Source of the DNA: a virus
Strand: one strand, 5' to 3'
Virus record (IMG/VR): IMGVR_UViG_3300047289_000054
Span: 1 to 37,410 of that record
DNA: 37,410 bases
The notes below the pieces were generated by a model. The model was given only the letters and a program-made list of their open reading frames with translations. It was not told where the DNA came from and made no database searches. Of the stretch, positions 6,381 through 35,108 are shown one piece after another. The position numbers and the translations under genes were made by a program. The number at the start of each line of letters is the position of its first letter. Position 1 is the stretch's first letter.

Positions 6381-7007
6381 TTATTCTATTTCAGGTCCAA
6401 GTTTTTCTTTTTCATTTCTTAATTGCTCCAAAAGGAAATACCCGATATACATTTCTTTACCTCGCCAGAATTTAACCAGTTCTTGAGCTTCTTCGTAATG
6501 CTCGGCTTCAAATTCAATCTGAATAGCTTTTTTCACTCCGTCTGTCATTCCTTGCATTTCATCAGACAAATCTTCATCATCAAGTAAGCTATAATCAACA
6601 TCTTCTTCTTGCTTCCAAACATCCATACCCCATTCTTCCAACTGGTCAGCATCCCATTCGTTCGCTAAATCATCCCAATTATTTTCACCGAATGAAACGT
6701 TATCTTTAATAATATAAGCTCTTAATTTAGCCACTGAAGTTTCTTGTGGTAAAATTTTGCACGGAACTTCTTTAATACCAACTTCTTGCGAAGCTTTTAA
6801 ACGCATATTTCCAGCAATAACAACTAACTCTCCATTGTTATCGTACGCAATAACTTCGCGAAGCTCTAACATTTCTGGGTCATCAATGATTGATTGTTTT
6901 AATTTTTCAAATTTTGCGTCACGAATAATTCTTGGATTTTTTGGCAAACCATTAATTTGACCATTGTTACCAATTAATTTGTTGATTTTAATTACTTCAA
7001 TTTTCAT
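6381..7007 (-). CDS. ParB/Srx-like protein of the DNA modification cassette
   Basis: A 208-residue protein whose first 90 residues form a ParB N-domain. NPRIIRDAKFEKLKQSI is followed by VIAGNMRLKASQEVGIKEVPC, which contains the GNMR version (66-69) of the GxxR nucleotide-binding motif. The C-terminal half is very acidic (QEEDVDYSLLDDEDLSDE) and ends in a helical segment. Phage ParB-like proteins of this type commonly lie beside TET/JBP and glycosyltransferase genes, and may act as nucleases or guide modification enzymes. It sits immediately before the glycosyltransferase. It is not a plasmid-partition gene: there is no ParA. Confidence 0.8.
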   Translation of the reverse strand: MKIEVIKINKLIGNNGQINGLPKNPRIIRDAKFEKLKQSIIDDPEMLELREVIAYDNNGELVVIAGNMRLKASQEVGIKEVPCKILPQETSVAKLRAYIIKDNVSFGENNWDDLANEWDADQLEEWGMDVWKQEEDVDYSLLDDEDLSDEMQGMTDGVKKAIQIEFEAEHYEEAQELVKFWRGKEMYIGYFLLEQLRNEKEKLGPEIE

Positions 7008-7010
7008 TTT

Positions 7011-7316
7011 CTATTTATTGATTTGATTGTACTTTCTTAATGCAGCCATTCTTGATGCGTCTGTTAGACTATAAATACCAAAACGAACATTTCTGCCGTG
7101 CTTGTTTTTTATCTCCTTCAAATCGCATTTAATGTTTATTTCGTGCGTAAGCCTAATTTTTGAAATAATTGCGGTAACATTTAAAACACCAGTCATTTCT
7201 GTAAGTTCAGACCGACTTGCATTTTTGTTATTAATTAATTCAAAAAGAATTTCAGAAGTTTGATTTTTTGGTTTTTCTAAAGAGTGTCTGTTTGTAGTCT
7301 TGAAAAAGTTGAACAT
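7011..7316 (-). CDS. Winged-helix DNA-binding protein at the head of the late unit
   Basis: A 101-residue protein. The middle (ILFELINNKNASRSELTEMTG, then TAIISKIRLTHEINIKC) reads as a winged-helix fold with recognition helix and basic wing, and ends FGIYSLTDASR. It is the first gene after an intrinsic terminator and the last before the modification cassette, packaging and virion genes, so it could regulate the late operon. No exact family name can be given. Start ATG at 7316 follows an A-rich leader. Confidence 0.65.
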   Translation of the reverse strand: MFNFFKTTNRHSLEKPKNQTSEILFELINNKNASRSELTEMTGVLNVTAIISKIRLTHEINIKCDLKEIKNKHGRNVRFGIYSLTDASRMAALRKYNQINK

Positions 7317-10086: not shown

Positions 10087-10446
10087 TTAATCTTTATGAA
10101 ATTGCCCGTCACGCATTACTCCAGTTCTTTTTGAAATTATATCATAAGCACTTTGCAAACATTCTTCAAGCTTTAATCCTTGCATTTCAGCTTGGATAAT
10201 TATCGTAACGAGTATATCTCCCAACGCGTCAATTATCTCCTCTTTATCGTTCTTATATATTGCCTCTGACAATTCCATTACTTCCTCAAATGTTTTTAAA
10301 CATTGAGCGTCTGGAGTTCCCTTTTCTAATATGCCTTTTTGTTCTGCCCAGCTAATCACTAATGCTTCAAGTTCGTTGTATTTCATTTCTCTTTTTTTTG
10401 TGTTATAAACTAAATTTGCGTGTAATGTATTGTTTTGATTTTTCAT
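10087..10446 (-). CDS. mazG: MazG-like nucleotide pyrophosphohydrolase
   Basis: A 119-residue all-helical protein with the MazG/dUTPase-like metal site: FEEVMELSEAI gives Glu54, Glu55 and Glu58, and DALGDIL gives Asp73 and Asp77. Such enzymes hydrolyse (d)NTPs to monophosphates, and phage versions are thought to shape nucleotide or alarmone pools. The 10446 ATG is kept because it overlaps the stop of the upstream 42-residue gene as ATGA; an internal ATG at 10386, preceded by AAAGAGAA, would give a 99-residue protein starting MKYNELE and is a serious alternative. Last gene of the small-gene array before a promoter gap. Confidence 0.85.
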   Translation of the reverse strand: MKNQNNTLHANLVYNTKKREMKYNELEALVISWAEQKGILEKGTPDAQCLKTFEEVMELSEAIYKNDKEEIIDALGDILVTIIIQAEMQGLKLEECLQSAYDIISKRTGVMRDGQFHKD

Positions 10447-10571
10447 CTTTTTAAATCGTATTTTATTGGTTTCACATCTTTGTGCTTTTCTGAAAGTTCT
10501 TTGGCTTCTTCTTTTAATCTTTTTTCTTGCTCCCAGATAGTTTCGTTTTTATCTATTGGTTTTGTTTTCAT
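10443..10571 (-). CDS. Small charged 42-aa protein
   Basis: A 42-residue reading frame that fills the gap between the peptidase-like gene and mazG. It is very rich in Lys and Glu (MKTKPIDKNETIWEQEKR...), probably a helical or disordered peptide with no membrane segment. Its TGA overlaps the mazG ATG as ATGA, which supports both the gene and that mazG start. No family recognised. Confidence 0.6.
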   Translation of the reverse strand: MKTKPIDKNETIWEQEKRLKEEAKELSEKHKDVKPIKYDLKR

Positions 10572-10573
10572 AA

Positions 10574-10900
10574 TTATTTTTTAAATTCATAAATTTGATC
10601 AAACAACCAACCTGTTAAATAAGCCTCAGGTTCATCATTATATCTATCTACTTCCATTGCGCAATCTATGTATATAGAGTTCTTCAAATGTACTATTTCG
10701 TGTGGTATGTTGCTTAGATGAGTCGCGTCTGTAAACCCTATAATATAATGTCTATACTTACTCTCGTCTTTTAATGTAACTGCTCCAAAATCAGATAGAG
10801 ACTTTGTCTTATATTTCTTTTCAACATAAGACAAATCCTCATCTAATATAATAGTTAACTTACAACAGTATATTGGTATATCTATTGTGGTCTTTTTCAT
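10574..10900 (-). CDS. Small zinc-metallopeptidase-like protein
   Basis: A 108-residue protein with IPHEIVHLKN, an HExxH zinc motif (His66, Glu67, His70). A later DEPEAYLTGWLFDQIY provides a Glu in a helix, as in the gluzincin third ligand. This minimal arrangement recurs in small phage proteins annotated as putative peptidases. Substrate unknown; it could be inactive. No signal peptide, so cytoplasmic. The start at 10900 is preceded by AAGATATG, the boundary-repeat leader of this gene array. Confidence 0.65.
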   Translation of the reverse strand: MKKTTIDIPIYCCKLTIILDEDLSYVEKKYKTKSLSDFGAVTLKDESKYRHYIIGFTDATHLSNIPHEIVHLKNSIYIDCAMEVDRYNDEPEAYLTGWLFDQIYEFKK

Positions 10901-10903
10901 ATC

Positions 10904-11332
10904 TTAAATGCTAAACCCTTGACTATTTAACCACTCTTTTAAAGCCTCAACAACTTGTTTGTCATTTTCTGCTAATCTACCTTTTACAAAAATATCTCCA
11001 TTAGGGCATAGCTTTAAAATTTCATTTCGGTTTTTATCCATTGAAAAAAATACTGTGTCCTTTTGGAAATCTTCAGCTTTTTTTAATACTAATACTTTTT
11101 CTTCTGTTTTCATATCTTTATTTTTTAAAAGGTTTTTAATTTCTTGTTTAACTTCTTCCCAATAGTTTGATAAATCATAATCTTTATCTACTGAATTTAT
11201 ATTCAATATCTCATAAACTGCTATTAATGCACATTGTTTGCTTTCGTCCCAACTTAATGTTTGACCTTCTTTATTAATTCCAAATGAATAATATTTTCTA
11301 ATTAATTGTTCTGCTTTTTCTTTTGGTCTCAT
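10904..11332 (-). CDS. Probable fusion of two small phage proteins across a boundary repeat
   Basis: A 142-residue frame made of two unlike parts. Residues 1-70 (KAEQLIRKYYSFG, CALIAVYEIL, NYWEEVKQEI) resemble a stand-alone small phage protein. Residues 74-142 (DTVFFSMDKNRNEILKLCP, GDIFVKGRLAENDKQVVEAL) resemble another. The join, LLKNKDMKTEE, is encoded by a degenerate copy of the boundary repeat found between neighbouring genes. Elsewhere that repeat gives a ...KNK stop, then AAGATATG; here it is AAT AAA GAT ATG, so the stop has gone and reading continues. The internal ATG at 11113 with its leader may still be used to make a 69-residue protein. Function unknown. Confidence 0.7.
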   Translation of the reverse strand: MRPKEKAEQLIRKYYSFGINKEGQTLSWDESKQCALIAVYEILNINSVDKDYDLSNYWEEVKQEIKNLLKNKDMKTEEKVLVLKKAEDFQKDTVFFSMDKNRNEILKLCPNGDIFVKGRLAENDKQVVEALKEWLNSQGFSI

Positions 11333-11345
11333 ATCTTATTTGTTT

Positions 11346-11471
11346 TTAAATTAGTTCATCATATTTTTCAAAAGCTTCTTCAAGTGTTTCTTGTTTAGGT
11401 TTACCTCCAAAATAAGCAGAAGCTAAATCATTAAATTCTTTTGTCCCTATTTGTGGAATTTCTTGTTTCAT
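11346..11471 (-). CDS. Small 41-aa acidic protein
   Basis: A 41-residue frame, MKQEIPQIGTKEF... to ...EEAFEKYDELI, with its ATG preceded by the array's standard ATAAGAT leader and its stop lying inside the next boundary repeat (11330-11352). Helical and acidic, no membrane segment or known motif. It is supported by its fit in the regular spacing of the cassette array. Confidence 0.6.
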   Translation of the reverse strand: MKQEIPQIGTKEFNDLASAYFGGKPKQETLEEAFEKYDELI

Positions 11472-11490
11472 ATCTTATTTGTAGCTGATT

Positions 11491-11715
11491 TTATTTAATT
11501 AAGTCAATATAAGTTGGAGCTGGACAAATTCCGTGAGTAAACTCTTCAAAATGATTATAATCATCTCCAATTTCTTCAATACTACACACGTAATGAAATC
11601 TAGTATCTAAATTAATATCACACTCTACTAATTGTAGTGATTCTTCTAATGGTAAGAAATCTAATTTCTCATCCAACATTTTCTGTGCAAATTTTTGCTT
11701 TAATTTTTCTTGCAT
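11491..11715 (-). CDS. Small hypothetical protein of the cassette array
   Basis: A 74-residue acidic protein with a helical first half (MQEKLKQKFAQKMLDEKL) and a second half containing three Cys residues and HFEEFTHGICP. No family recognised. Its leader belongs to a variant boundary element containing GTAGCTGATTTTA on the plus strand, shared with the site at 11471-11493. Probably a dispensable early phage protein, inferred from location only. Confidence 0.55.
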   Translation of the reverse strand: MQEKLKQKFAQKMLDEKLDFLPLEESLQLVECDINLDTRFHYVCSIEEIGDDYNHFEEFTHGICPAPTYIDLIK

Positions 11716-11716
11716 A

Positions 11717-11980
11717 TTATTTATTTGTAGCTGATTTTAAAATATTTAATGTATTTTCAATATCTGCAGTAATATATTTCTGAAATAATATTTGACCTTT
11801 AAAAATATCTACATAATAATTATCAACTTCTTCGTTAGGTAATTGATTTGTAGGTCTTGGAAAATCACCACACAAATTTGAAGTTTGTAAGTAAAGTTCA
11901 TTTGAAAAATTATATAATCTTGCGTTTGATTTGTCTAATTTTACTTTAATTTCTTGTAATTTTGATTCTTGGTTTTTCAT
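11717..11980 (-). CDS. Small hypothetical protein of the cassette array
   Basis: An 87-residue protein beginning MKNQESKLQEIKVKLDKSNARL, a likely amphipathic or coiled helix, followed by a Pro/Asn-rich middle (CGDFPRPTNQLPNEE) and a C-terminal helix ending LKSATNK. That C-terminal tail is encoded by a sequence repeated, in non-coding form, at 11475-11493. No function recognised. Confidence 0.55.
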   Translation of the reverse strand: MKNQESKLQEIKVKLDKSNARLYNFSNELYLQTSNLCGDFPRPTNQLPNEEVDNYYVDIFKGQILFQKYITADIENTLNILKSATNK

Positions 11981-11993
11981 ATTTTTATTTTTT

Positions 11994-12215
11994 TTAAATT
12001 AATTTTGAATATTCGTATAACACTTTCATTTTATCGTATAAATCAATTTTACTTGATAGATTTGGACTTACAAATTTTAACGTACCTTTCATTTCTACAA
12101 TTTTACTATCAGAATAATTATCTAATTCATCTTGTAACATTTCATAAAATCTAACGTACTTACCGTTAAAAGAAGTGTCCTGTATAATTTCACTTAATAA
12201 ATCTTGAGTTATCAT
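11994..12215 (-). CDS. Small hypothetical protein of the cassette array
   Basis: A 73-residue acidic protein (MITQDLLSEIIQDTSFNGKY... to ...YDKMKVLYEYSKLI), probably mixed alpha/beta, with no Cys cluster, membrane segment or known motif. Its start has the perfect boundary-repeat leader (AATAAGATATG). No family recognised. Confidence 0.55.
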   Translation of the reverse strand: MITQDLLSEIIQDTSFNGKYVRFYEMLQDELDNYSDSKIVEMKGTLKFVSPNLSSKIDLYDKMKVLYEYSKLI

Positions 12216-12228
12216 ATCTTATTTATTT

Positions 12229-12624
12229 TTAAATTGTTCTATATCCTTGATAATCGCATTTGTCACTTGAACATTTAGTTGTTTTTTGACAAGGATAAGA
12301 GGTTAAAACAACGTTAGGTTTAGAATCTAATAATTCACTTTTACATTTAGGGCAAGTAAGTCCATTTAATACTGGGTTTCCAAAGTAACTACTGTTAGTA
12401 GTTGTATAAGAACCTAAAGATAAATCACTATTTGAAATTTGTACTTTTTTTACTAACTCAACCTTACCTTCTTTTGCATTATACCAATCTTTTTGATATT
12501 TAAACTCAAATCCACTATCTCTCATTACGATAGTCATTTCTTCTTTATCATCTGTTACCAATTTTATTGGTAAATAAACTTGTTCTAGTTGAAACGAATC
12601 ATCTTGATTAACTTCTATTTTCAT
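12229..12624 (-). CDS. Small zinc-ribbon-like protein of the cassette array
   Basis: A 131-residue protein with a beta-rich N-terminal half and a Cys-rich C-terminal half. CPKC is followed by CQKTTKCSSDKCDY, which could hold one zinc ion in a ribbon or treble-clef fold. No catalytic motif. It may bind nucleic acid or protein; the zinc role is inferred from Cys spacing only. Both flanking boundary repeats are near-perfect copies. Confidence 0.6.
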   Translation of the reverse strand: MKIEVNQDDSFQLEQVYLPIKLVTDDKEEMTIVMRDSGFEFKYQKDWYNAKEGKVELVKKVQISNSDLSLGSYTTTNSSYFGNPVLNGLTCPKCKSELLDSKPNVVLTSYPCQKTTKCSSDKCDYQGYRTI

Positions 12625-12642
12625 ATCTTATTTGTTTTTAAA

Positions 12643-12888
12643 TTAATATTTTTCCATTACTACTATCCAAGTATCTTCGTATCGAGAAGTTCCTGCAACA
12701 GACTTAACAATATATCCTTGTCTAATATAATTGTTTATTGCTTCTTTTACACTTCTTTGTCCATAATCAATAGTAAAAACTATTGTTCCTTTAGGCTTTG
12801 CTGGTTTAACAGTCATTACAGAAACTGTTGTTGCTGATGTTAGTATTACAATCACAATTCCTAACATAAAATAAAAAGCTGTTTTCAT
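12643..12888 (-). CDS. Small membrane-anchored or exported protein
   Basis: An 81-residue protein with one N-terminal hydrophobic helix (MKTAFYFMLGIVIVILTSAT), then a Pro/Lys linker and a compact domain (IVFTIDYGQRSVKEAINNYI, ending DTWIVVMEKY). The helix could be an anchor or an uncleaved signal; there is no lipobox. The exposed domain resembles small DUF-type domains with a YIRQGYIVKS turn, but I cannot name it. A possible envelope-acting early protein, such as one for superinfection exclusion, purely by inference. Confidence 0.55.
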   Translation of the reverse strand: MKTAFYFMLGIVIVILTSATTVSVMTVKPAKPKGTIVFTIDYGQRSVKEAINNYIRQGYIVKSVAGTSRYEDTWIVVMEKY

Positions 12889-12891
12889 ATC

Positions 12892-13092
12892 TTATTTGTT
12901 TTTAAATTGTTCTGTTAATTTTGAATGTAAATTATGAACACAACTTGAAACTTTTACTTGTGTATATTCTGTAAGTCCTGTGTCTAAATCTGTTCTTTTT
13001 AACAACTCAAATGTTGGTATTCCAGCTCCAAAATCTTCTATGAACATTATATGTTCCCACTTTGACCAGTTATTTTTTTTAAATAGTTTCAT
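12892..13092 (-). CDS. Small hypothetical protein of the cassette array
   Basis: A 66-residue basic protein starting MKLFKKNNWSKWEHIMFIED and containing RTDLDTGLTEYTQVKVSSC, a strand-turn-strand pattern. It ends in EQFKNK, the tail encoded by the boundary repeat itself, as in two other genes of the array. No family recognised. Confidence 0.55.
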   Translation of the reverse strand: MKLFKKNNWSKWEHIMFIEDFGAGIPTFELLKRTDLDTGLTEYTQVKVSSCVHNLHSKLTEQFKNK

Positions 13093-13095
13093 ATC

Positions 13096-13203
13096 TTATT
13101 TGTTTTTAAAAGTTTTGTACAGTTTAATAAATGTAATTAAGATTATAGTTCCTATAATCAATCCTAATGAAAAGTATCCTAAAAACCCTATTAATATTCC
13201 CAT
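13096..13203 (-). CDS. Tiny single-pass membrane peptide (35 aa)
   Basis: A 35-residue frame, MGILIGFLGYFSLGLIIG... to ...YKTFKNK, nearly all one hydrophobic helix with a basic C-terminus. The start sits after a variant boundary repeat (13201-13223), and the stop lies inside the next one (13090-13110). Regular spacing and the FKNK tail support it as a real gene. Role unknown. Confidence 0.6.
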   Translation of the reverse strand: MGILIGFLGYFSLGLIIGTIILITFIKLYKTFKNK

Positions 13204-13217
13204 AATTTTATTTGTTT

Positions 13218-13385
13218 TTAAATTTTATTTAACCTACTTTCTATTAACTTTAACTTTAATTTCTCTTGTCTTAATTCCTTACCTTTACCCCACAAATAAG
13301 TATTTTCAAACATTCTTTTTTCCATTTCAAGTGTTTTAATACTTTCGAGTGTTTTAAAATATATCTCTATTAATTTCTTTTTCAT
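13218..13385 (-). CDS. Small basic helical protein (55 aa)
   Basis: A 55-residue frame, MKKKLIEIYFKTLESIK... to ...LKLIESRLNKI, strongly charged and helical, probably forming a short coiled coil. Start and stop both fall in boundary repeats (13383-13405 and 13201-13223). No family recognised. Confidence 0.6.
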   Translation of the reverse strand: MKKKLIEIYFKTLESIKTLEMEKRMFENTYLWGKGKELRQEKLKLKLIESRLNKI

Positions 13386-13388
13386 ATC

Positions 13389-14150
13389 TTATTTATTTTT
13401 AAATTCAAAATATTCTTCACGTTCAATTTTTTCTCCGTATATTCTTTCAGATTTATTCCATAAACCATCTACACAACTAAATACAATTTTAAAGTATCTC
13501 TTTTGAGGTGGTTGGGAAGGATGGATAGTTAAAGTTGCAAGTGATGTTTCTTCATAAATCATCTCGATACTATCTATTCGTTCATTTACTTGTAATCTTG
13601 TTGGTTCGCTCCACATAAACCCAGCAGTTGTTCCACTTGTTCCCGTATATACTGTTCCTGTAGTAATTAATGGGTCGTTTGTAAAAGTTTCAGTTCTTTT
13701 TCCATTTTCCACTTTAAAACCTATTTCTTTTGGAATGATGATTTTGTAACCTGCATCAGCAAATCCGCCCAAAGCACCATAACATAAATTATTTACCCTA
13801 ACACTCTCACAACTCGGATTCTTAACAAACCATTCAAGGAACTCATCATCAATAGCTTGCACACCATCAAGAATCAAATCTTGGTCTGTGGTTAGGATTA
13901 TTTCAGGACATATTTTAGAATCTAAAATAACAGATACTTGATGAATAAAACCATTCATACCTTCTCTATTATCAATAATCCATCTTAATATTTCATCTTT
14001 AATTTCCTTATCAGAAGTGATGTAGATGTTTTGTGTTAAAACATTAATAGTTTTTTCGTGTAAAATAGGTTGTAAATACAATTTATTCTCTATTGTATCA
14101 ATCATTAACCTACTCGGTTTATCTGTTGGTAATACGTGTATGTTTTTCAT
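13389..14150 (-). CDS. Conserved phage protein with MKNIHVLPTDKPSRL start
   Basis: A 253-residue protein. Its first 15 residues and the later LTTDQDLILDGVQAIDDEFL and WFVKNPSCE blocks form a pattern I recognise from many phages, including those of Bacteroidota and large myoviruses, but whose function is unknown. The region after residue 120 (GALGGFADAGYKIIIPKE, then a Thr/Gly-rich strand region) seems to be an insertion, before a C-terminal block with FKIVFSCVDGLWNKSERIYGE. The tail EFKNK is supplied by a boundary repeat. No catalytic signature. Confidence 0.65.
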   Translation of the reverse strand: MKNIHVLPTDKPSRLMIDTIENKLYLQPILHEKTINVLTQNIYITSDKEIKDEILRWIIDNREGMNGFIHQVSVILDSKICPEIILTTDQDLILDGVQAIDDEFLEWFVKNPSCESVRVNNLCYGALGGFADAGYKIIIPKEIGFKVENGKRTETFTNDPLITTGTVYTGTSGTTAGFMWSEPTRLQVNERIDSIEMIYEETSLATLTIHPSQPPQKRYFKIVFSCVDGLWNKSERIYGEKIEREEYFEFKNK

Positions 14151-14152
14151 AG

Positions 14153-14404
14153 TTATTTATTTAAAAATTCATAAATTGTATCTGGACTTAATTTATTGGC
14201 TTTACTTTGTCTGACTGAATATTGCCAAGGTACTTGACTATTTAATTGGTCTATACTCATATTTCGTATTGTTTCCATTCTGTGTTCCAGTTTGGCAATT
14301 TCAATACAAAGCTTTCCGAGTGCTTCTTCTGGGCAAAATTTCAAATATCTTTTATAAGAAATTAATTGTGACTCAATTCTATTTCTGTGAGCTATTACTT
14401 TCAT
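14153..14404 (-). CDS. Small hypothetical helical protein
   Basis: An 83-residue basic, helical protein (MKVIAHRNRIESQLISYKRY, CPEEALGKLCIEIAKLEHRM, VPWQYSVRQSKANKLSPDTI). No named family. It ends FLNK and abuts the next gene by 2 bases. It lies directly downstream of the HNH endonuclease gene and could be transcribed from the promoter near 15035. Confidence 0.55.
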   Translation of the reverse strand: MKVIAHRNRIESQLISYKRYLKFCPEEALGKLCIEIAKLEHRMETIRNMSIDQLNSQVPWQYSVRQSKANKLSPDTIYEFLNK

Positions 14405-14406
14405 TT

Positions 14407-14940
14407 TTAAATTTGTTTTAATTTTTCTTGATATGCATTTGAAGCTTCTTCAATTGTTTTATATAATCCTAAACATAATTGTTTTCGGTTAATTCTTATT
14501 TTTGCCCTATATTTTTTTAAATCTTTTCTATAATGAACACCAACTGGTAAACCTGATTTTATTACTCTTTCTTTTGAGCAATTTTCTCTTTGACTTACTA
14601 TTCTTAAATTACTTATTGAATTATTTAAAGTGTTACTGTCAATATGGTCAATTACCATTTTATGACCTTGAAATTTATAACCTAAAAATACAGATGCTAA
14701 AATTTGATGAATTGGTATTCTTTTTGGTTTTAAACCGCTAATTTGAACAAAAACTTGTTTGTAATTTTTTATAGATATTTCTATTTTTTCATTTGTTATT
14801 TCTCCATAAAAAACCATATTTGAACCGCTACCTTTTCCATACCATTCTTTTGGTATTTTTTTAATACGACCACATTTTGTGACTTCAATGTTTGTTTCTA
14901 AACCATTGTAATAAAATGGTTTCCATTCTAAATTTTTCAT
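14407..14940 (-). CDS. HNH homing-type endonuclease with C-terminal AP2 domain
   Basis: A 177-residue protein from the ATG at 14940; an upstream in-frame ATG at 14982 would translate the leader hairpin and is less likely. The HNH motif is IPIHQILASVF with His78, then VIDHIDSNTLNNSISNLRI with Asp98-His99, Asn107 and Asn111. Residues 134-175 (GVHYRKDLKKYRAKIRI ... YKTIEEASNAY) form an AP2-type DNA-binding domain, as in free-standing phage homing endonucleases. The protein would nick or cut at a target site in related phages and spread itself. It has its own promoter-like leader with an inverted repeat. Confidence 0.9.
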   Translation of the reverse strand: MKNLEWKPFYYNGLETNIEVTKCGRIKKIPKEWYGKGSGSNMVFYGEITNEKIEISIKNYKQVFVQISGLKPKRIPIHQILASVFLGYKFQGHKMVIDHIDSNTLNNSISNLRIVSQRENCSKERVIKSGLPVGVHYRKDLKKYRAKIRINRKQLCLGLYKTIEEASNAYQEKLKQI

Positions 14941-14966
14941 AAAATAAAAAAACCACCAAATCAAAG

Positions 14967-15020
14967 GTCGCAGTCTTATCATTAGTGGAATTTATTTAAA
15001 TTTTTATAAGTATCTGCGAC
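14967..15020 (-). promoter_or_regulatory. Inverted repeat in the leader of the HNH gene
   Basis: GTCGCAG at 14967-14973 is the exact reverse complement of CTGCGAC at 15014-15020. A second paired segment, CTTAT (14975-14979) with ATAAG (15006-15010), lies just inside, giving a 12-bp interrupted stem around an AT-rich loop of 26 bases. It is unusually GC-rich for this genome and lies in the predicted 5' leader between the promoter at 15031 and the HNH start. It may be an RNA hairpin controlling the nuclease or a protein-binding site. Confidence 0.65.
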
Positions 15021-15076: not shown

Positions 15077-15397
15077 TTAATCTAAATATTGATAAATCGG
15101 TTCTTTTGTACTTTTAGTATTTAATAAATTGTAAATCTTTTGTTTTGTTAATCCAGTTTTTTCAACACAATCAGCAACTGAATCAAATATTTCACCATCT
15201 GAAATTCTAATTACTTTTTTTAGTTCTCCATTTGTTTTTTGAACATAAAAAGGATTTTTTGGTATTTTTCCATTTTTAATACTTTCCAAAACTTGATAAT
15301 CTATTTCTGTGTATTTTGAATGGTGCTTATTTAAAAGACGATGATTTTTAATACCAGCGTCTGAAAATATTTTATTGATAATTTTATTTGTTAGCAT
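15077..15397 (-). CDS. NUMOD1-like DNA-binding protein
   Basis: A 106-residue protein. The C-terminal part, VIRISDGEIFDSVADCVEKT followed by GLTKQKIYNLLN and PIYQYL, has the pattern of NUMOD1-type helix-turn-helix modules attached to homing endonucleases, but no nuclease domain is present. The N-terminal half is basic and helical (MLTNKIINKIFSDAGIKNHR). It lies next to the HNH-AP2 gene and may be a separated DNA-recognition module or a small regulator. It overlaps the upstream gene by 14 bases. Confidence 0.6.
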   Translation of the reverse strand: MLTNKIINKIFSDAGIKNHRLLNKHHSKYTEIDYQVLESIKNGKIPKNPFYVQKTNGELKKVIRISDGEIFDSVADCVEKTGLTKQKIYNLLNTKSTKEPIYQYLD

Positions 15398-18274: not shown

Positions 18275-19186
18275 TTATATAATTTGATTTGCCAATTCCA
18301 AACTCAAATCATTTAAAAATGTTCTCGCTTTGTCAATTTGGCTTTTTATTGAATCTATTAAAACTTGGTCTTTTGAAGTTTTGAAAATTTTAATTCTCAT
18401 ATTTTCTGGAATTTCTCTAAAGTCTTTGAACCAATCAATATTTACACTTGGATTTTGTTCGCAAAATTCTAACAATCCTTTATGAGTATAAATTTTATTT
18501 TGAACAATTTCAACAATTAAATGAATAGAATCTTCGCGAATGTTTCCGTCATTATCCATTACGTTATAATTCCAATCCGCTCGTCTAATTTCGTCATTGA
18601 TAATCTTATGTGGAGTATCAACAAGGCAATAAATCAACTCGGCTTCTTCTATTCCAGTTAAATCCATATACCCGTTGAGCTGGTACACATAATCTTGATT
18701 TTTAATTTCAGTATCATACATTGGAAATGTAGAATAATCCCAAGATGATTTGATGTCACGAATCACTCCAGCTTTGTTATCTGGCTCCCCACTAAAATAT
18801 TCATTCTTGAAACGCTCTTTATTTTTGAAAAACGGCTTTCCGATAAAGTTAGAATACAAAGTCAAAGACTGGTCCTCAACTTGAATACCTTTTTCAGTGT
18901 ATTTGCTTTTCATAATATTGCTTCTTTTGAAAATATATTCACGATGCAATTGTTTCAAATACGTTTTAACACCAGCGGAAAGCTCAATTGGTGCGTGTTT
19001 TTTAGCTAATAAATCTCCAAGTGTAATCGTTTGCTTCTCTGTTATCTTTCCTACTTTTTGTTTTTCAAGTAAGTCAATCATTGTTTTTTCTTGATTTTCT
19101 GTCAAGTTTGGTTTTACACCAGTCATCAAAGAGCCAAGTCCAGAACAACGAAATAGGTAATTTTCAAATGTAACTTCGGTTTTCAT
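18275..19186 (-). CDS. YqaJ/lambda-exo-like recombination exonuclease
   Basis: A 303-residue protein with a PD-(D/E)xK nuclease core: Glu104 in KGIQVEDQSL, Asp136 in GEPDNKAG, Asp144-Ile-Lys146 in VIRDIKSSW, and the QLNGYMDLTG helix (Gln169 to Asp175) typical of YqaJ-type viral recombinases. It would resect double-strand ends to give 3' tails for RecT annealing. It has its own strong promoter, separated from recT by a terminator, so the two partners can be expressed at different levels. Confidence 0.82.
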   Translation of the reverse strand: MKTEVTFENYLFRCSGLGSLMTGVKPNLTENQEKTMIDLLEKQKVGKITEKQTITLGDLLAKKHAPIELSAGVKTYLKQLHREYIFKRSNIMKSKYTEKGIQVEDQSLTLYSNFIGKPFFKNKERFKNEYFSGEPDNKAGVIRDIKSSWDYSTFPMYDTEIKNQDYVYQLNGYMDLTGIEEAELIYCLVDTPHKIINDEIRRADWNYNVMDNDGNIREDSIHLIVEIVQNKIYTHKGLLEFCEQNPSVNIDWFKDFREIPENMRIKIFKTSKDQVLIDSIKSQIDKARTFLNDLSLELANQII

Positions 19187-25054: not shown

Positions 25055-25118
25055 AATTTTTATTTTAAATTAATAAGTTATTTCAACAAAAATATAAAAT
25101 TTATTTATATATTACTAA

Positions 25119-25436
25119 TTAATTCTCAAACGGTGGTGGCAAAGTAACATTTATTGGATTAATCATCAAATCCAATTGTTTGTCTAAACTTTCTTCCATT
25201 GTAGGAACGTCCAAAGTAGCTTCTAACCAGCCACAAACTTGCTCTTTTGTTAGTTCTTCATAAGGTGTAAAATCCTCTCCTGTTGGTAAAGGCATCGAAG
25301 TTGCTCCGTACATATCAGTGTAAACACCATCTTTTGTTGCAGCATAACGCCAATGAATTGTAATTACTACGTCTTGTAAATCACCATCTTTTTTGATACA
25401 TTCCATTGCTGAAATTATCCACTTAAATATTGTCAT
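25119..25436 (-). CDS. Small protein downstream of the tail fibre
   Basis: A 105-residue acidic protein: FKWIISAMECIKKDGDLQDV, VITIHWRYAATKDGVYTDMY, FTPYEELTKEQVCGWLEATL, then a Pro-rich end. I associate this pattern (a DUF7936-like look) with proteins encoded next to tail fibres in many phages; a chaperone or fibre-associated role is possible. It starts 2 bases after the fibre gene. Confidence 0.6.
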   Translation of the reverse strand: MTIFKWIISAMECIKKDGDLQDVVITIHWRYAATKDGVYTDMYGATSMPLPTGEDFTPYEELTKEQVCGWLEATLDVPTMEESLDKQLDLMINPINVTLPPPFEN

Positions 25437-25437
25437 A

Positions 25438-26805
25438 TTATTTTGTTTTTAAAATTTCTATTTCTGCTTTTAGTTCTTTAATAGCTTCAATAAGTACAGG
25501 AACTAAATCTGTATAAGCTACGGATTTGGTTTGATTTTCATCTGTTCCTGTTGTTACTGCTTGTGGTAATATTTCTTCTACATCTTGAGCAAGTAAACCA
25601 ATATGATTATTATCGTCTAAATTCATATCAGTAGCTTCTTTATCCCAATTAAAAGTAACACCATTTAAAGCTAAAATTTTATCTAAAGCATTTTGAATTG
25701 GTAATATATCTTTTTTATATCTTTTATCTGATAAGTTATTGTAGGCACTTGTACCTGCAACTGAACCATTAACGTGTAATGTATAACTCGGCGAAGTTGT
25801 TCCTATTCCTACGTTGCCACCTGAAGGGTTTAAAGCAATTGGATAAGCTAAATCATTTATTCCAGTATGTCTGTTTTGCATCCAAAAAGTAAATGGACTA
25901 CTTGCAGAACCACCCATTACTAATTCATTTCCTACTGCATTCGGAGTAAAAGTTGCTATTGCAGCAGTACCAGCAGTTAAAGTTGGGTTGCCACTAACTC
26001 CTACTACTTGTATTTTACTATTTGGACTTGTTGTTCCTATTCCTACGTTGCCACCCGCTTCAATTACTACTTTTTGACTTCCGTTAGTATTTAATTTTAT
26101 AGCACCATTTGATTCATTTGAAACTAATAAATCAGTACCTGTATAAAATAAGAAAGATTTACCAACACCGCCAATACTTAAAGCCAACATTGATTGAGTA
26201 GCTCCGTTGATATCTAAAACTCGTCTATTTGTTGCTAAATAATTAGGCGCAGTACTTCCAATAGCAATATTCCCAGTTGGATTCACATAAATAATTCCAG
26301 ATTTTGTAACTAATTTAAAATCTATTTCAGTGTCCCCACCTAATAAAGGAGAACTCATTTCAGCCCAATTGTTTTTTGCTGAATTGTATAATCTTATTTG
26401 ATTAGTTGTAAATAAAGATAAATTACCGTTTACCGTAAAAGCGCTTAATGGAATAGTTGTGTTAATTCCTATACCACTTCCATTATCATAAATCAAACTA
26501 TTACCTAATGTATTACTTCCAGTTGCTTTTGGGATATACCCAACTCCCAAAGAACCAGACTGGCTAAATGTACGATTGAATAAAACTGGAAGCAAAGCGT
26601 TTTGTAAAGCCGAAACGCTTCCGTAAGTAACTCCGTCAACACTAATGTCGCTATAAATAGTAGGGAAATTTGTCAAAGAAATACAAGCATCGTATGTATT
26701 CACAATGCTAACTTTATTACCAGTTACAAATGGAGTGAAATTCTTAAAATAGTTTATACCATTGTAAGAAAATTTTGTGTCTGAAATATTAATTATTGTA
26801 ATCAT
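25438..26805 (-). CDS. Tail fibre with C-terminal S74 self-cleaving chaperone domain
   Basis: A 455-residue fibre. The N-terminal part (about 1-110) is beta-rich, and the middle has repeated GNVGIGTTSP-type units (four degenerate copies, 105-345) that build a trimeric shaft. The C-terminal 100 residues are an intramolecular chaperone of the peptidase S74 family: LSDKRYKKDI with the Ser-Lys catalytic pair, GLLAQDVEEILPQAV, and a final coiled coil (LVPVLIEAIKELKAEIEIL). The chaperone trimerises the fibre and is then cut off. It likely binds the host surface. Overlaps the connector gene by 4 bases. Confidence 0.88.
   Translation of the reverse strand: MITIINISDTKFSYNGINYFKNFTPFVTGNKVSIVNTYDACISLTNFPTIYSDISVDGVTYGSVSALQNALLPVLFNRTFSQSGSLGVGYIPKATGSNTLGNSLIYDNGSGIGINTTIPLSAFTVNGNLSLFTTNQIRLYNSAKNNWAEMSSPLLGGDTEIDFKLVTKSGIIYVNPTGNIAIGSTAPNYLATNRRVLDINGATQSMLALSIGGVGKSFLFYTGTDLLVSNESNGAIKLNTNGSQKVVIEAGGNVGIGTTSPNSKIQVVGVSGNPTLTAGTAAIATFTPNAVGNELVMGGSASSPFTFWMQNRHTGINDLAYPIALNPSGGNVGIGTTSPSYTLHVNGSVAGTSAYNNLSDKRYKKDILPIQNALDKILALNGVTFNWDKEATDMNLDDNNHIGLLAQDVEEILPQAVTTGTDENQTKSVAYTDLVPVLIEAIKELKAEIEILKTK
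25796..26055. repeat. 26-bp direct repeat inside the tail fibre gene
   Basis: Positions 25796-25821 and 26030-26055 are identical (beginning GTTGTTCCTATTCCTACG). They encode the GGNVGIGTTS shaft unit twice. Recombination between the copies would remove 234 bases, a multiple of three, and shorten the shaft in frame. Confidence 0.85.
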
Positions 26806-32402: not shown

Positions 32403-35108
32403 CTAAAAATTCGCATTATCTTGTACCGTTGCGTAACGATTTCCAACTCTTTGTATTTCGTCAACCGCTACAATTGGAGCTGGCATTGAAGCGATTGCTT
32501 CTGTAATAGAAGATAAATCCATTGTATTTGGTTTTACACCTTGTGTGATGATTCCACCTCCAGCGAAAAATCCCCTATTACTTGAACCTCCATTGTAATT
32601 GTTATTGAAATCCATAAAAGCACCGAATGCGCGTCTGTTTAAAATACCAATACCCTCTCCAGCTTCCGCTTCAAATGAAGTTCCGTCTTCTCCCCAGAAT
32701 TTTGTTCCACCAGCCGAATGACGTTTTCCGCCAATTTCTTGAATACCCCCTTGTTCAAATTTTGGCTGGTTATCAGTTGAAAGTATTTTTTTAACATTGG
32801 CAATACCAGAAACTACTGCCGCTCCAGCTGCCACTGCTCCCAATGCTGGACCAACTACTGGTATTCCAGCCATCGCTTTGTAAGCTGCCGTTGCTGATTG
32901 GTAAGTGTCAATTGTGGTTTGTGCCACCGCCATTGCTTTTCCAGCTGCTGATTCTTTACCTAAAATGGTTGCTAAATTTCCAAAAGTTTGTGACGCAAGA
33001 TTTAATTTATTTGAAGCCACAATTGCTTCAACTTCCATTTTTTGTTTTGCGTATTTGTCGTTGATTAATTTAGTGTCGGCGCCAGTTTTTTCAGCTGCTT
33101 GAACTTCCGCTAATCTTTTCGCTTCTAATTGTTGAGTTTGAAAAGCTAAATCATAATCCCTATTGGCAGTATCTGCCGCAAGTTTGTTTTCTAAATCAAT
33201 AGCTTTCTTTGCCTTATCATCTTCAACTTTTTTTGCGTCTAATGCTTTTTTATCAGTGTCAAATTTATCATCAATAGCTTTTATTGCCGTATTATATTGT
33301 TCAGCTGTTATTGTGCCAGCAGCTAATCGTGCAGTCTGTGCCGCAGCTTCTGCTTCTGATGTCTTATTTAGACGTTCTAACTCTTGTCTATATAATTCAT
33401 CACTTAAGAATTTATTCGCGTCTAATTTGCTCTTATTTGCGTTCAAGAATATTTGTAATTCTAAATCGGCTTGAGCAATTGTTGCGTCAGTTTGTTTTTG
33501 TAAGAAACTATTTTTTATTTCTAACTTTTGAGCTTCATATTCTGTTTGAGTTATTTTACCCTTTTCTTTTTCATATTCTAAAACCGATAAACGTTTATCC
33601 CTTAATTGCTCCTCGAATTTTAAATTTTCTTCTAATGATTTAGCACGTATACCTTGACTGGCTATAAATAATTGTATTTCAGAATTTTGTTTTGCAATAG
33701 CTTGGTCGATAATCTTTTCAGCAGCGGCTTGTCTTTTTTCTTTTGCAGCTTGAGCATCTGATTCAGCTTTTTCTGCTTTCGCTTGTGCATTTTCCGCCAA
33801 TTTATCTTCTTGGTTTTGCGCTTTTTCTAATCTTTTGGTAGTTTCATCTTTTATAGAAATTTTCCCTAATTCAGCTTTTTTAATAGCTTCCAATTCCTTT
33901 TCTGTGATACGACCTTGATTTAACAAATAATTTCCGTAAGCCATTGTGTTACGTTTCAAATTCGTTAATTCTTGGTCAGATAATTGCCCCTTAATTCTGG
34001 CTCCCTCAATAGCATTTTTCAATTCAGCTTCGGCAAGTGCAGAACGTTGTCTAAAATTGGCTTCCTCTATTTTTTGAGCTTGTTGGATATAGGCAATTCT
34101 TTCTTTTTCTGTAAGCGTTCTATTTTTAGATTTCACAATCAATTCATCATATTGTTGTGAAGCTTTCGCATTCGCTACTTCTTGGGAACGTTGCGCGTCA
34201 GCTAAATCTTGTTGAGCATTTTTAAGATTTGCAGCTTCTTTCGCCGCACTCGCCATTGACGAACCAAAACCAGAAAAGGCTTCTTTTAATGATTTCGCTC
34301 CAGTTATTAAAGATAAAAACGTTTGTCTAATTACATCTACAACAGCACTAATTGCCGCAAAACCTTGCTCAACTTTATCCATTACTGGGTCAAGGCTTTT
34401 GAATAATCCAATCAAAGTACCTAATACAACACCAATAACTGCCAATACGGCTCCAATTGGTGTAGCGATAAAAGCCAAAGATGCTTTTACTAATCCTAAA
34501 ACACCTTGTACCATTCCTGTTATAGCGCCCTTGAATAAGTTACCAGCACCCCCAGCTTCTTGCGCTCTTTGTGCAAATGCACCCAAACCTCCATTCAATG
34601 GATTAATACTCGCAAATGCTTCCCTTACACTATCTGTGTAATTACCAATGTTTATTTTTTGTTTCAAATAAGCATCGGCATTAGATTTTATGTAATCATT
34701 ATTTTCATCAAGCTTTTTATTTAAAGCAGTGATTTGCGCTTGACCTTCAGCAGTTGTCGTGTTCGTTTCATTACGCAATTTATTCAACAACTTGTTTTGC
34801 TCTCTGGCTTCTGATATTGAAGCGACTTCTGTGTTTAAAGCCAAATTCAAAAGCTCGGTTTGAGTAACTTGATTTTCAGTAGCTTTTCCACTTTCTTGGA
34901 TAGCTTTTACATTTGAAGAATAAGCACTATTTAAAGATTTCAAAACGGCTTCATTTTCAATAAATTGTTCCGAAGTTCCTTTACCAGAAATTACTAATTC
35001 TTTTTGAGCGTTTTTTATAGAATCAATTTGCTTCTTCAAATCTGAAGTTGATTTTAAAAGTAAATCTATATCAATGTCTAATTCTGCTAATACTATTTTT
35101 TGTGCCAT
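32403..35108 (-). CDS. Tail tape-measure protein
   Basis: A 901-residue protein, the largest in the window. The N-terminus has long coiled coils (LLKSTSDLKKQIDSIKNAQK, LLNKLRNETNTTTAEGQAQI). A hydrophobic stretch follows around residues 195-240 (GVLGLVKASLAFIATPIGAV). The long middle is Lys/Glu/Ala/Gln-rich coiled coil, and near 730-770 there is a second hydrophobic Gly/Ala block (MAGIPVVGPALGAVAAGAAV). The C-terminus is Gly-rich (QGGIQEIGGKRHSAGG). These are hallmarks of tape measures. At about 0.15 nm per residue it suggests a tail near 135 nm, an estimate. The gene starts 3 bases after the large tail protein. Confidence 0.9.
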   Translation of the reverse strand: MAQKIVLAELDIDIDLLLKSTSDLKKQIDSIKNAQKELVISGKGTSEQFIENEAVLKSLNSAYSSNVKAIQESGKATENQVTQTELLNLALNTEVASISEAREQNKLLNKLRNETNTTTAEGQAQITALNKKLDENNDYIKSNADAYLKQKINIGNYTDSVREAFASINPLNGGLGAFAQRAQEAGGAGNLFKGAITGMVQGVLGLVKASLAFIATPIGAVLAVIGVVLGTLIGLFKSLDPVMDKVEQGFAAISAVVDVIRQTFLSLITGAKSLKEAFSGFGSSMASAAKEAANLKNAQQDLADAQRSQEVANAKASQQYDELIVKSKNRTLTEKERIAYIQQAQKIEEANFRQRSALAEAELKNAIEGARIKGQLSDQELTNLKRNTMAYGNYLLNQGRITEKELEAIKKAELGKISIKDETTKRLEKAQNQEDKLAENAQAKAEKAESDAQAAKEKRQAAAEKIIDQAIAKQNSEIQLFIASQGIRAKSLEENLKFEEQLRDKRLSVLEYEKEKGKITQTEYEAQKLEIKNSFLQKQTDATIAQADLELQIFLNANKSKLDANKFLSDELYRQELERLNKTSEAEAAAQTARLAAGTITAEQYNTAIKAIDDKFDTDKKALDAKKVEDDKAKKAIDLENKLAADTANRDYDLAFQTQQLEAKRLAEVQAAEKTGADTKLINDKYAKQKMEVEAIVASNKLNLASQTFGNLATILGKESAAGKAMAVAQTTIDTYQSATAAYKAMAGIPVVGPALGAVAAGAAVVSGIANVKKILSTDNQPKFEQGGIQEIGGKRHSAGGTKFWGEDGTSFEAEAGEGIGILNRRAFGAFMDFNNNYNGGSSNRGFFAGGGIITQGVKPNTMDLSSITEAIASMPAPIVAVDEIQRVGNRYATVQDNANF

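What the first reader, a model, noticed from the sequence alone, without database searches (positions are those of the whole stretch)
10898..14150. Array of small gene cassettes joined by interchangeable boundary repeats
About a dozen copies of one short repeat (core CATATCTTATTTGTTTTTAA on the plus strand) lie exactly at gene joints. Each copy carries the end of one gene, the ribosome site and the ATG of the next, and the same repeat supplies FKNK or related tails to unrelated proteins. This gives short homologies at every boundary, so a RecT-type recombinase could swap, delete or add single genes while keeping translation signals. It resembles the boundary-sequence idea from lambdoid phages, but with much shorter cassettes and many copies in a row.
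Basis: partly seen in the sequence, partly recalled or inferred. Interest (0 to 1): 0.75.

Follow-up and report, generated by a model that had tools for sequence, protein, structure and literature searches.

The report
Shared linker repeats between phage genes
Many phages that probably infect flavobacteria share one roughly 25-base linker that ends one small gene and starts the next, and near-identical phages differ by single genes cut out or put in exactly at these linkers, so phages may trade genes like building blocks with a common connector.

Summary
Confirmed and extended. The window (a ~37 kb phage genome) has six near-identical copies of a gene-joint repeat (gene sense AATTTAAAAACAAATAAGATATGAAA; 0.07 expected) plus about six degenerate ones. 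The repeat holds the upstream gene's last codons and stop, an A-rich leader and the downstream ATG. It also occurs in over 100 other viral contigs (259 distinct copies in 144 fetched loci), often clustered, next to unrelated small genes. Near-identical siblings (97-99% flanks) carry 0, 0 and 1 genes where the window carries a 12-gene insert; the junction lies in a boundary repeat. In another phage pair (99-100% flanks) one 42-codon gene is present or absent, exchanged within a 24-nt perfect copy. Homologous genes with different neighbours lose homology at the repeat's outer edge. Wobble-codon choice and multiple frames show nucleotide-level conservation. Best reading: a stop-leader-start boundary sequence reused at many joints and serving as short homology for gene gain, loss and exchange. 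RecT is not general: most carriers lack it; some have ERF or Rad52-like annealases. It resembles lambdoid boundary sequences, T4 regulatory cassettes and mycobacteriophage start-associated sequences; its spread across so many phages looks unreported.

The parts
13383..13409 (-). boundary repeat, strong copy: end of 253-aa gene (EFKNK*), start of 55-aa gene
13090..13116 (-). boundary repeat, strong copy: end of 35-aa gene (TFKNK*), start of 66-aa gene
12886..12912 (-). boundary repeat, strong copy: end of 66-aa gene (EQFKNK*), start of 81-aa gene
12622..12648 (-). boundary repeat, strong copy: start of 131-aa gene; 27 nt identical to the 12886 copy
12213..12239 (-). boundary repeat, strong copy (T at -10): start of 73-aa gene; upstream gene stops in the other frame (RTI*)
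11330..11356 (-). boundary repeat, strong copy: start of 142-aa gene; upstream gene ends ELI*
13201..13227 (-). degenerate copy (AATTTAAAAACAAATAAAATTATG) at start of 35-aa gene
11978..12004 (-). degenerate copy at start of 87-aa gene
11713..11739 (-). degenerate copy (CAGCTACAAATAAATAATATG) at start of 74-aa gene
11469..11495 (-). degenerate copy (CAGCTACAAATAAGATATG) at start of 41-aa gene
10898..10911 (-). short remnant (TTTAAGATATG) at start of 108-aa gene
14148..14182 (-). upstream boundary of the insert (IYEFLNK* then ATG of 253-aa gene); pairs with 10573-10600
10573..10600 (-). downstream boundary of the insert (QIYEFKK* then ATG of 42-aa gene); direct repeat of 14155-14182, crossover site seen in L298
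10574..14150 (-). 12-gene insert between the 83-aa and 42-aa genes (genes 13389-14150 through 10574-10900); absent from L298 and L295, replaced by one gene in L297
19565..20461 (-). RecT-family annealase
18275..19186 (-). exonuclease, likely partner of RecT

Best explanation
The repeat is a stop-leader-start boundary sequence. In gene sense it reads about (GAACA)ATTTAAAAASAAATAAGATATGAAA: it terminates the upstream gene in either of two frames (the third frame can close just past the ATG), provides an A-rich unstructured leader and supplies the next ATG. Because the same sequence sits at many joints in one genome and at joints in many other phages, it gives 20-30 nt of homology wherever small accessory genes meet. 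Recombination between copies removes, inserts or swaps single genes or runs of genes without breaking reading frames or start signals. Shown: the repeat, its position, its spread, breakpoints at it, two clean gain/loss events through it or a related joint repeat, permuted gene order. Inferred: that phage single-strand annealing proteins (RecT, ERF, Rad52-like) or replication slippage carry out the exchange; that the leader is an effective translation start in the host; and that the repeat spread by recombination and is kept because it works.
For: Statistics: 6 copies against 0.07 expected; 346 profile hits against 2 in shuffled loci; 84% of copies open an ORF of at least 30 codons against 24% of control ATGs, and upstream ORFs stop at -6, -16 or +1. 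Close relatives: flanks 97-99% identical, but 0, 0 and 1 genes in place of 12. Single-gene event: L306 against L305, 99.97% and 99.3% flanks, one 42-codon gene more or less, crossover in a 24-nt perfect repeat AATTTAAAAACAAATAAGATTATG. 19 clean indels among near-identical loci have direct repeats of median 17 nt against 1 nt in simulated deletions, p=1e-10; 8 of 19 are 20 nt or more against 0.7%. Hybrid joints switch parent inside the motif (L109, L243, L015). Gene order permuted (L243, L018). Homologous genes with different neighbours: identity about 0.9 over -15 to -1 with the motif, about 0.5 without, about 0.3 upstream of -27. Break rate per covering alignment 54% at motif against 29% at neighbouring starts, p=6e-7. 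Nucleotide-level conservation: AAC 84% and AAG 92% in tail codons against 32% and 25% background. Repeat lengths of 22-27 nt match the minimal pairing segment reported for Red-beta (23-27 bp) but are below that for RecA (31-34 bp) (PMC3945230).
Against: Only one clean recent event uses the exact motif family with near-identical flanks on both sides; the window's own event uses a related IYEF-tail repeat. Similar swaps at other joints of the siblings use other repeats or none. Most loci were fetched by the motif; in loci found by protein the excess is smaller (31% against 16%, n=16, p=0.036). Most carriers lack a recognised RecT, ERF or Rad52 gene, though the contigs are often incomplete. All main data are metagenome contigs; cultured Flavobacterium elemo phages show degenerate copies and indels at other short repeats.
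Confidence: 0.72

Rival explanations
1. The repeat is only a favourable translation start (or stop-start coupling) signal for flavobacterial ribosomes, reached independently at many genes; breakpoints fall there because viable exchanges must fall between genes.
For: It sits where a translation start region would be; it is A-rich and unstructured; A at -12/-13 is a positive determinant in Flavobacterium johnsoniae (PMC6847099); host genomes hold a few copies at real gene starts.
Against: It has G at -3 (93%) and T at -6 (99%), where A is favoured in F. johnsoniae. Host genomes have only 94 distinct exact copies in 257 Gb, and the upstream TTT is present in 4 of 94 against 94 of 146 in viruses. 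Conservation reaches into the upstream gene's last codons with fixed wobble bases and variable stop-to-ATG spacers. Breakpoints are commoner here than at other operonic starts.
Confidence: 0.17
2. The repeat is a binding site for a phage or host factor (RNA or protein) that co-regulates the early small genes, as proposed for mycobacteriophage start-associated sequences; recombination is a by-product.
For: Copies are clustered in early-type regions, on one strand, across unrelated genes; a near-fixed C or G at -10 is not needed for coding.
Against: No conserved fold; the same gene family occurs with and without the repeat; the spacer to the ATG varies.
Confidence: 0.08
3. The shared FKNK/WFEQFKNK C-terminus is a functional protein tag, and the DNA repeat follows from it.
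For: At least 37 distinct proteins end in WFEQFK[NK]K.
Against: Wobble bases are fixed against codon bias, and many copies are read in another frame with no such tail.
Confidence: 0.02

Closest known systems
Boundary sequences of lambdoid phages (short conserved sequences at module joints)
   Same: Short homologies at gene joints that let homologous recombination swap modules while keeping function.
   Different: Those are said not to be identifiable at most mosaic boundaries (PMC3029335); here one sequence recurs at many joints in one genome and across many otherwise different phages, with single small genes between.
T4-type phage mobile regulatory cassettes (PeSL, promoter plus stem-loop; Arbiol et al. 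2010, cited in PMC4177764; paper itself not held, details from memory)
   Same: Repeated intergenic element in regions of small accessory genes, proposed to mediate modular shuffling.
   Different: Here the element has no stem-loop and no promoter evidence; it overlaps the stop codon and the start codon.
Start-associated sequences (SAS) of cluster K mycobacteriophages (PMC3203893)
   Same: Short asymmetric repeats a few bases before start codons of unrelated non-structural genes, nearly absent from host genomes, one orientation.
   Different: SAS are 13 bp, GC-rich, contain a Shine-Dalgarno core, sit mostly in gaps over 50 bp and are confined to one phage cluster; here the repeat includes stop, leader and ATG, is A-rich and spans many phages. 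No gene exchange at SAS is described in the text read.
Integron gene cassettes (attC)
   Same: Single-gene cassettes with a recurring end sequence.
   Different: No palindromic attC-like fold; short AT-rich non-palindromic repeats; exchange looks homologous.

Membership tests
Boundary sequences (lambdoid type) | short conserved sequence at joints between exchangeable genes | tested here: met
Boundary sequences (lambdoid type) | breakpoints between related phages fall inside the conserved sequence | tested here: met
Boundary sequences (lambdoid type) | exchange by homologous recombination functions | not testable with these tools
   annealase genes present in the window and some carriers only
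Start-associated sequences | repeat directly before start codons of unrelated non-structural genes, one orientation | tested here: met
Start-associated sequences | GGGATAGGAGCCC consensus with Shine-Dalgarno core | tested here: not met
   consensus ATTTAAAAACAAATAAGATATG
T4 PeSL cassettes | early promoter plus stem-loop in the intergenic element | tested here: not met
   no stable or conserved fold; promoter activity not tested
Integron attC cassettes | palindromic attC that folds into a hairpin | tested here: not met
Integron attC cassettes | IntI-type integrase in the genome | not tested
   no integrase was specifically searched for

The most novel reading that the evidence does not exclude
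Phages of flavobacteria, from small genomes to ones of about 250 kb, share a common stop-leader-start connector that works as a general adaptor for single-gene exchange between otherwise unrelated phages, maintained by selection for exchangeability as well as for translation.
Probability: 0.3. Interest if true: 0.82.

Novelty: new variant of a known kind. Interest (0 to 1): 0.64.

Why it matters
Whether phage mosaicism comes from short boundary homologies or from illegitimate recombination plus selection has been argued for decades, partly because boundary sequences cannot be found at most joints (PMC3029335). This phage group carries an obvious, countable boundary sequence in many copies, with near-identical genomes differing by one gene across it. 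That makes the question directly testable, gives a handle to find mobile small phage genes of unknown function, and warns annotators that shared C-terminal FKNK tails come from the DNA linker.

Tried and rejected
Host translation signal alone: rejected as full explanation. Protein tag: rejected by wobble bases and frame use. RNA structure: none. RecT as general agent: rejected. Close DNA relatives of the region among named phages: only scattered short hits; the 253-aa protein has no match there. Function of the small genes: no Pfam or PHROGs hit at E up to 0.01 for the short array genes tested, nor for the 253-aa gene; two weak PADLOC matches (ThsB-like E=0.003, Cas8b E=0.0009) judged chance. 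A scan for relatives of the 87-aa gene gave none by tblastn although DNA-level relatives exist in loci already held. Two calls to the genome search and one to the fetch from genomes failed on list or length limits; one script hit its time limit. Literature searches for such repeats in flavobacterial or Bacteroidota phages found nothing relevant.
Full report
What is there. The window is a phage genome of 37,410 bases, 31% G+C, with nearly all genes on the minus strand. Sibling contigs run across its two ends, so it is probably complete and circularly permuted. It encodes a portal, tail proteins, a RecT annealase and an exonuclease. Between the 83-aa gene (14153-14404) and the 42-aa gene (10443-10571) lie twelve genes, most of them short, joined by a repeat. 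In gene sense the strong copies read AATTTAAAAACAAATAAGATATGAAA. Six further joints have degenerate versions. Perfect identity between strong copies reaches 27 nt, against at most 13 nt between other gene starts in the window.

Anatomy. In 259 distinct copies from 144 viral loci the conserved block runs from about -24 to +5 around the ATG. Positions -15 to -1 were part of the search seed, but TTT at -18 to -16 (70-82%) and a weaker GAACAA at -24 to -19 were not, and they are conserved too. 84% of the ATGs open a frame of at least 30 codons, against 24% of control ATGs. The upstream gene ends inside the repeat in most cases: at -6 (157 copies, giving KNK* tails), at -16 (38 copies, giving LI*-type ends) or at +1 (19 copies). 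The longest versions read GAATGGTTTGAACAATTTAAAAASAAATAAGATATGAAA and encode WFEQFK[NK]K*.

Nucleotide rather than protein conservation. In KNK/KKK tails that are not followed by GATATG, Asn is AAC in 47 of 56 cases (background 32%) and the middle Lys is AAG in 45 of 49 (background 25%). Together with the use of other reading frames, this excludes the peptide tail as the main conserved object. The stop-to-ATG spacer varies (GATATG, GATTATG, TATG, GATG), which does not fit one rigid ribosome signal. In F. johnsoniae the positive determinants are A at -3, -6, -12 and -13 (PMC6847099); the repeat has A at -12/-13 but G at -3 and T at -6. In 257 Gb of bacterial and archaeal genomes there are 94 distinct exact copies, and only 4 carry the upstream TTT, against 94 of 146 in viruses. 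One Flavobacterium MAG contig (L210) carries two full copies, which points to Flavobacterium as a likely host group.

Comparison of close relatives. L295, L297 and L298 are 97-99% identical to the window in the flanks. Where the window has twelve genes, L298 and L295 have none and L297 has one. L298 joins the 83-aa gene to the 42-aa gene through the direct repeat 14155-14182 / 10573-10600, with the switch within AATTTATGAATTT. L295 and L297 have AAACAAATAAGATATG-type joints at the same place.

A single-gene event in this motif family. L306 and L305 are 99.97% identical over 3,348 nt on one side and 99.3% over 451 nt on the other. L306 has one extra gene of 42 codons, flanked by two copies of AATTTAAAAACAAATAAGATTATG (24 nt, perfect); L305 has one copy, its left side from the first and its right side from the second. 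Direction, gain or loss, is not known.

General pattern. Among all fetched loci I found 19 clean presence/absence differences between near-identical stretches (two are the same event seen against two siblings). Their junctions carry direct repeats of median 17 nt, against 1 nt for simulated random deletions (p=1e-10); 8 of 19 are at least 20 nt, against 0.7%. Four of them belong to this motif family or to related joint repeats; others use duplicated gene starts. Cultured elemo phages of Flavobacterium, free of metagenome assembly doubts, show degenerate copies of the motif and three indels with junction repeats of 11, 24 and 32 nt.

Older exchanges. Single window genes recur in other phages with homology ending at the joints. 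L018 joins the 87-aa gene straight to the 108-aa gene; L243 has the 87-aa gene before the 55- and 35-aa genes, the reverse of the window's order; L109 joins the end of the 253-aa gene to the 87-aa gene. Across homologous gene pairs with different upstream neighbours, identity is about 0.9 over -15 to -1 when both have the motif and about 0.5 when not, falling to about 0.3 beyond -27. Corrected for the number of covering alignments, 54% of alignments break at motif boundaries against 29% at neighbouring operonic starts (p=6e-7); in loci fetched by protein rather than by motif it is 31% against 16% (n=16, p=0.036). The uncorrected test gives 88 of 205 against 130 of 950, but it is biased by how loci were chosen.

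Who does it. RecT was found in 5 of 39 carrier records, three of which are the window and its siblings; ERF in 8 of 36, a Rad52-like protein in 1 of 36. Many contigs are partial, so absence is weak. The repeat is therefore not tied to RecT. The perfect lengths (22-27 nt) match the minimal pairing segment cited for Red-beta (23-27 bp) and lie under that for RecA (31-34 bp) (PMC3945230), which makes annealing proteins plausible. This step is inference.

Known relatives. It works like the lambdoid boundary sequences and the T4 mobile regulatory cassettes, and looks like the start-associated sequences of cluster K mycobacteriophages (PMC3203893). It differs from the T4 element by having no stem-loop, and from SAS by sequence, by spanning stop and start, and by its spread. 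I found no report of it for flavobacterial phages, but the library holds open-licence papers only.

Verdict. The cassette reading is well supported; the specific enzyme is not. Sibling genomes also swap genes at joints without the repeat, so the repeat favours exchange at certain joints rather than being required for it.

Noticed in passing
window 13389-14150: The first ~142 residues of the 253-aa protein recur in at least 288 viral stretches, often several copies per phage, with different C-terminal parts; a 98-nt block (13806-13903) is much more conserved than the rest. No match in the named phage collection by tblastn.
   Followed up: partly
window 14407-14982: HNH endonuclease gene (PF13392) present here but missing cleanly in siblings L297 and L298, with little or no junction repeat; probably a mobile homing-type gene.
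   Followed up: partly
window 25103-26465 and 32762-33732: Tail-fibre region replaced or diverged in sibling phages with 92-99% identical flanks.
   Followed up: no
window 6982-7019 and 15378-15397: Siblings carry an extra gene here between duplicated gene starts (29- and 20-nt direct repeats), another case of gene gain or loss at start-codon repeats.
   Followed up: partly
L118, L119, L124 and other loci: A large linked group of small phage proteins with recurring starts (MKQTAVEWL, MKQETLEEAAE) and recurring ends (WFEQFKNK) but variable middles.
   Followed up: no
L210: Flavobacterium sp. MAG contig with two full boundary repeats before members of the 253-aa family: a possible prophage or co-binned phage giving the host.
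   Followed up: no
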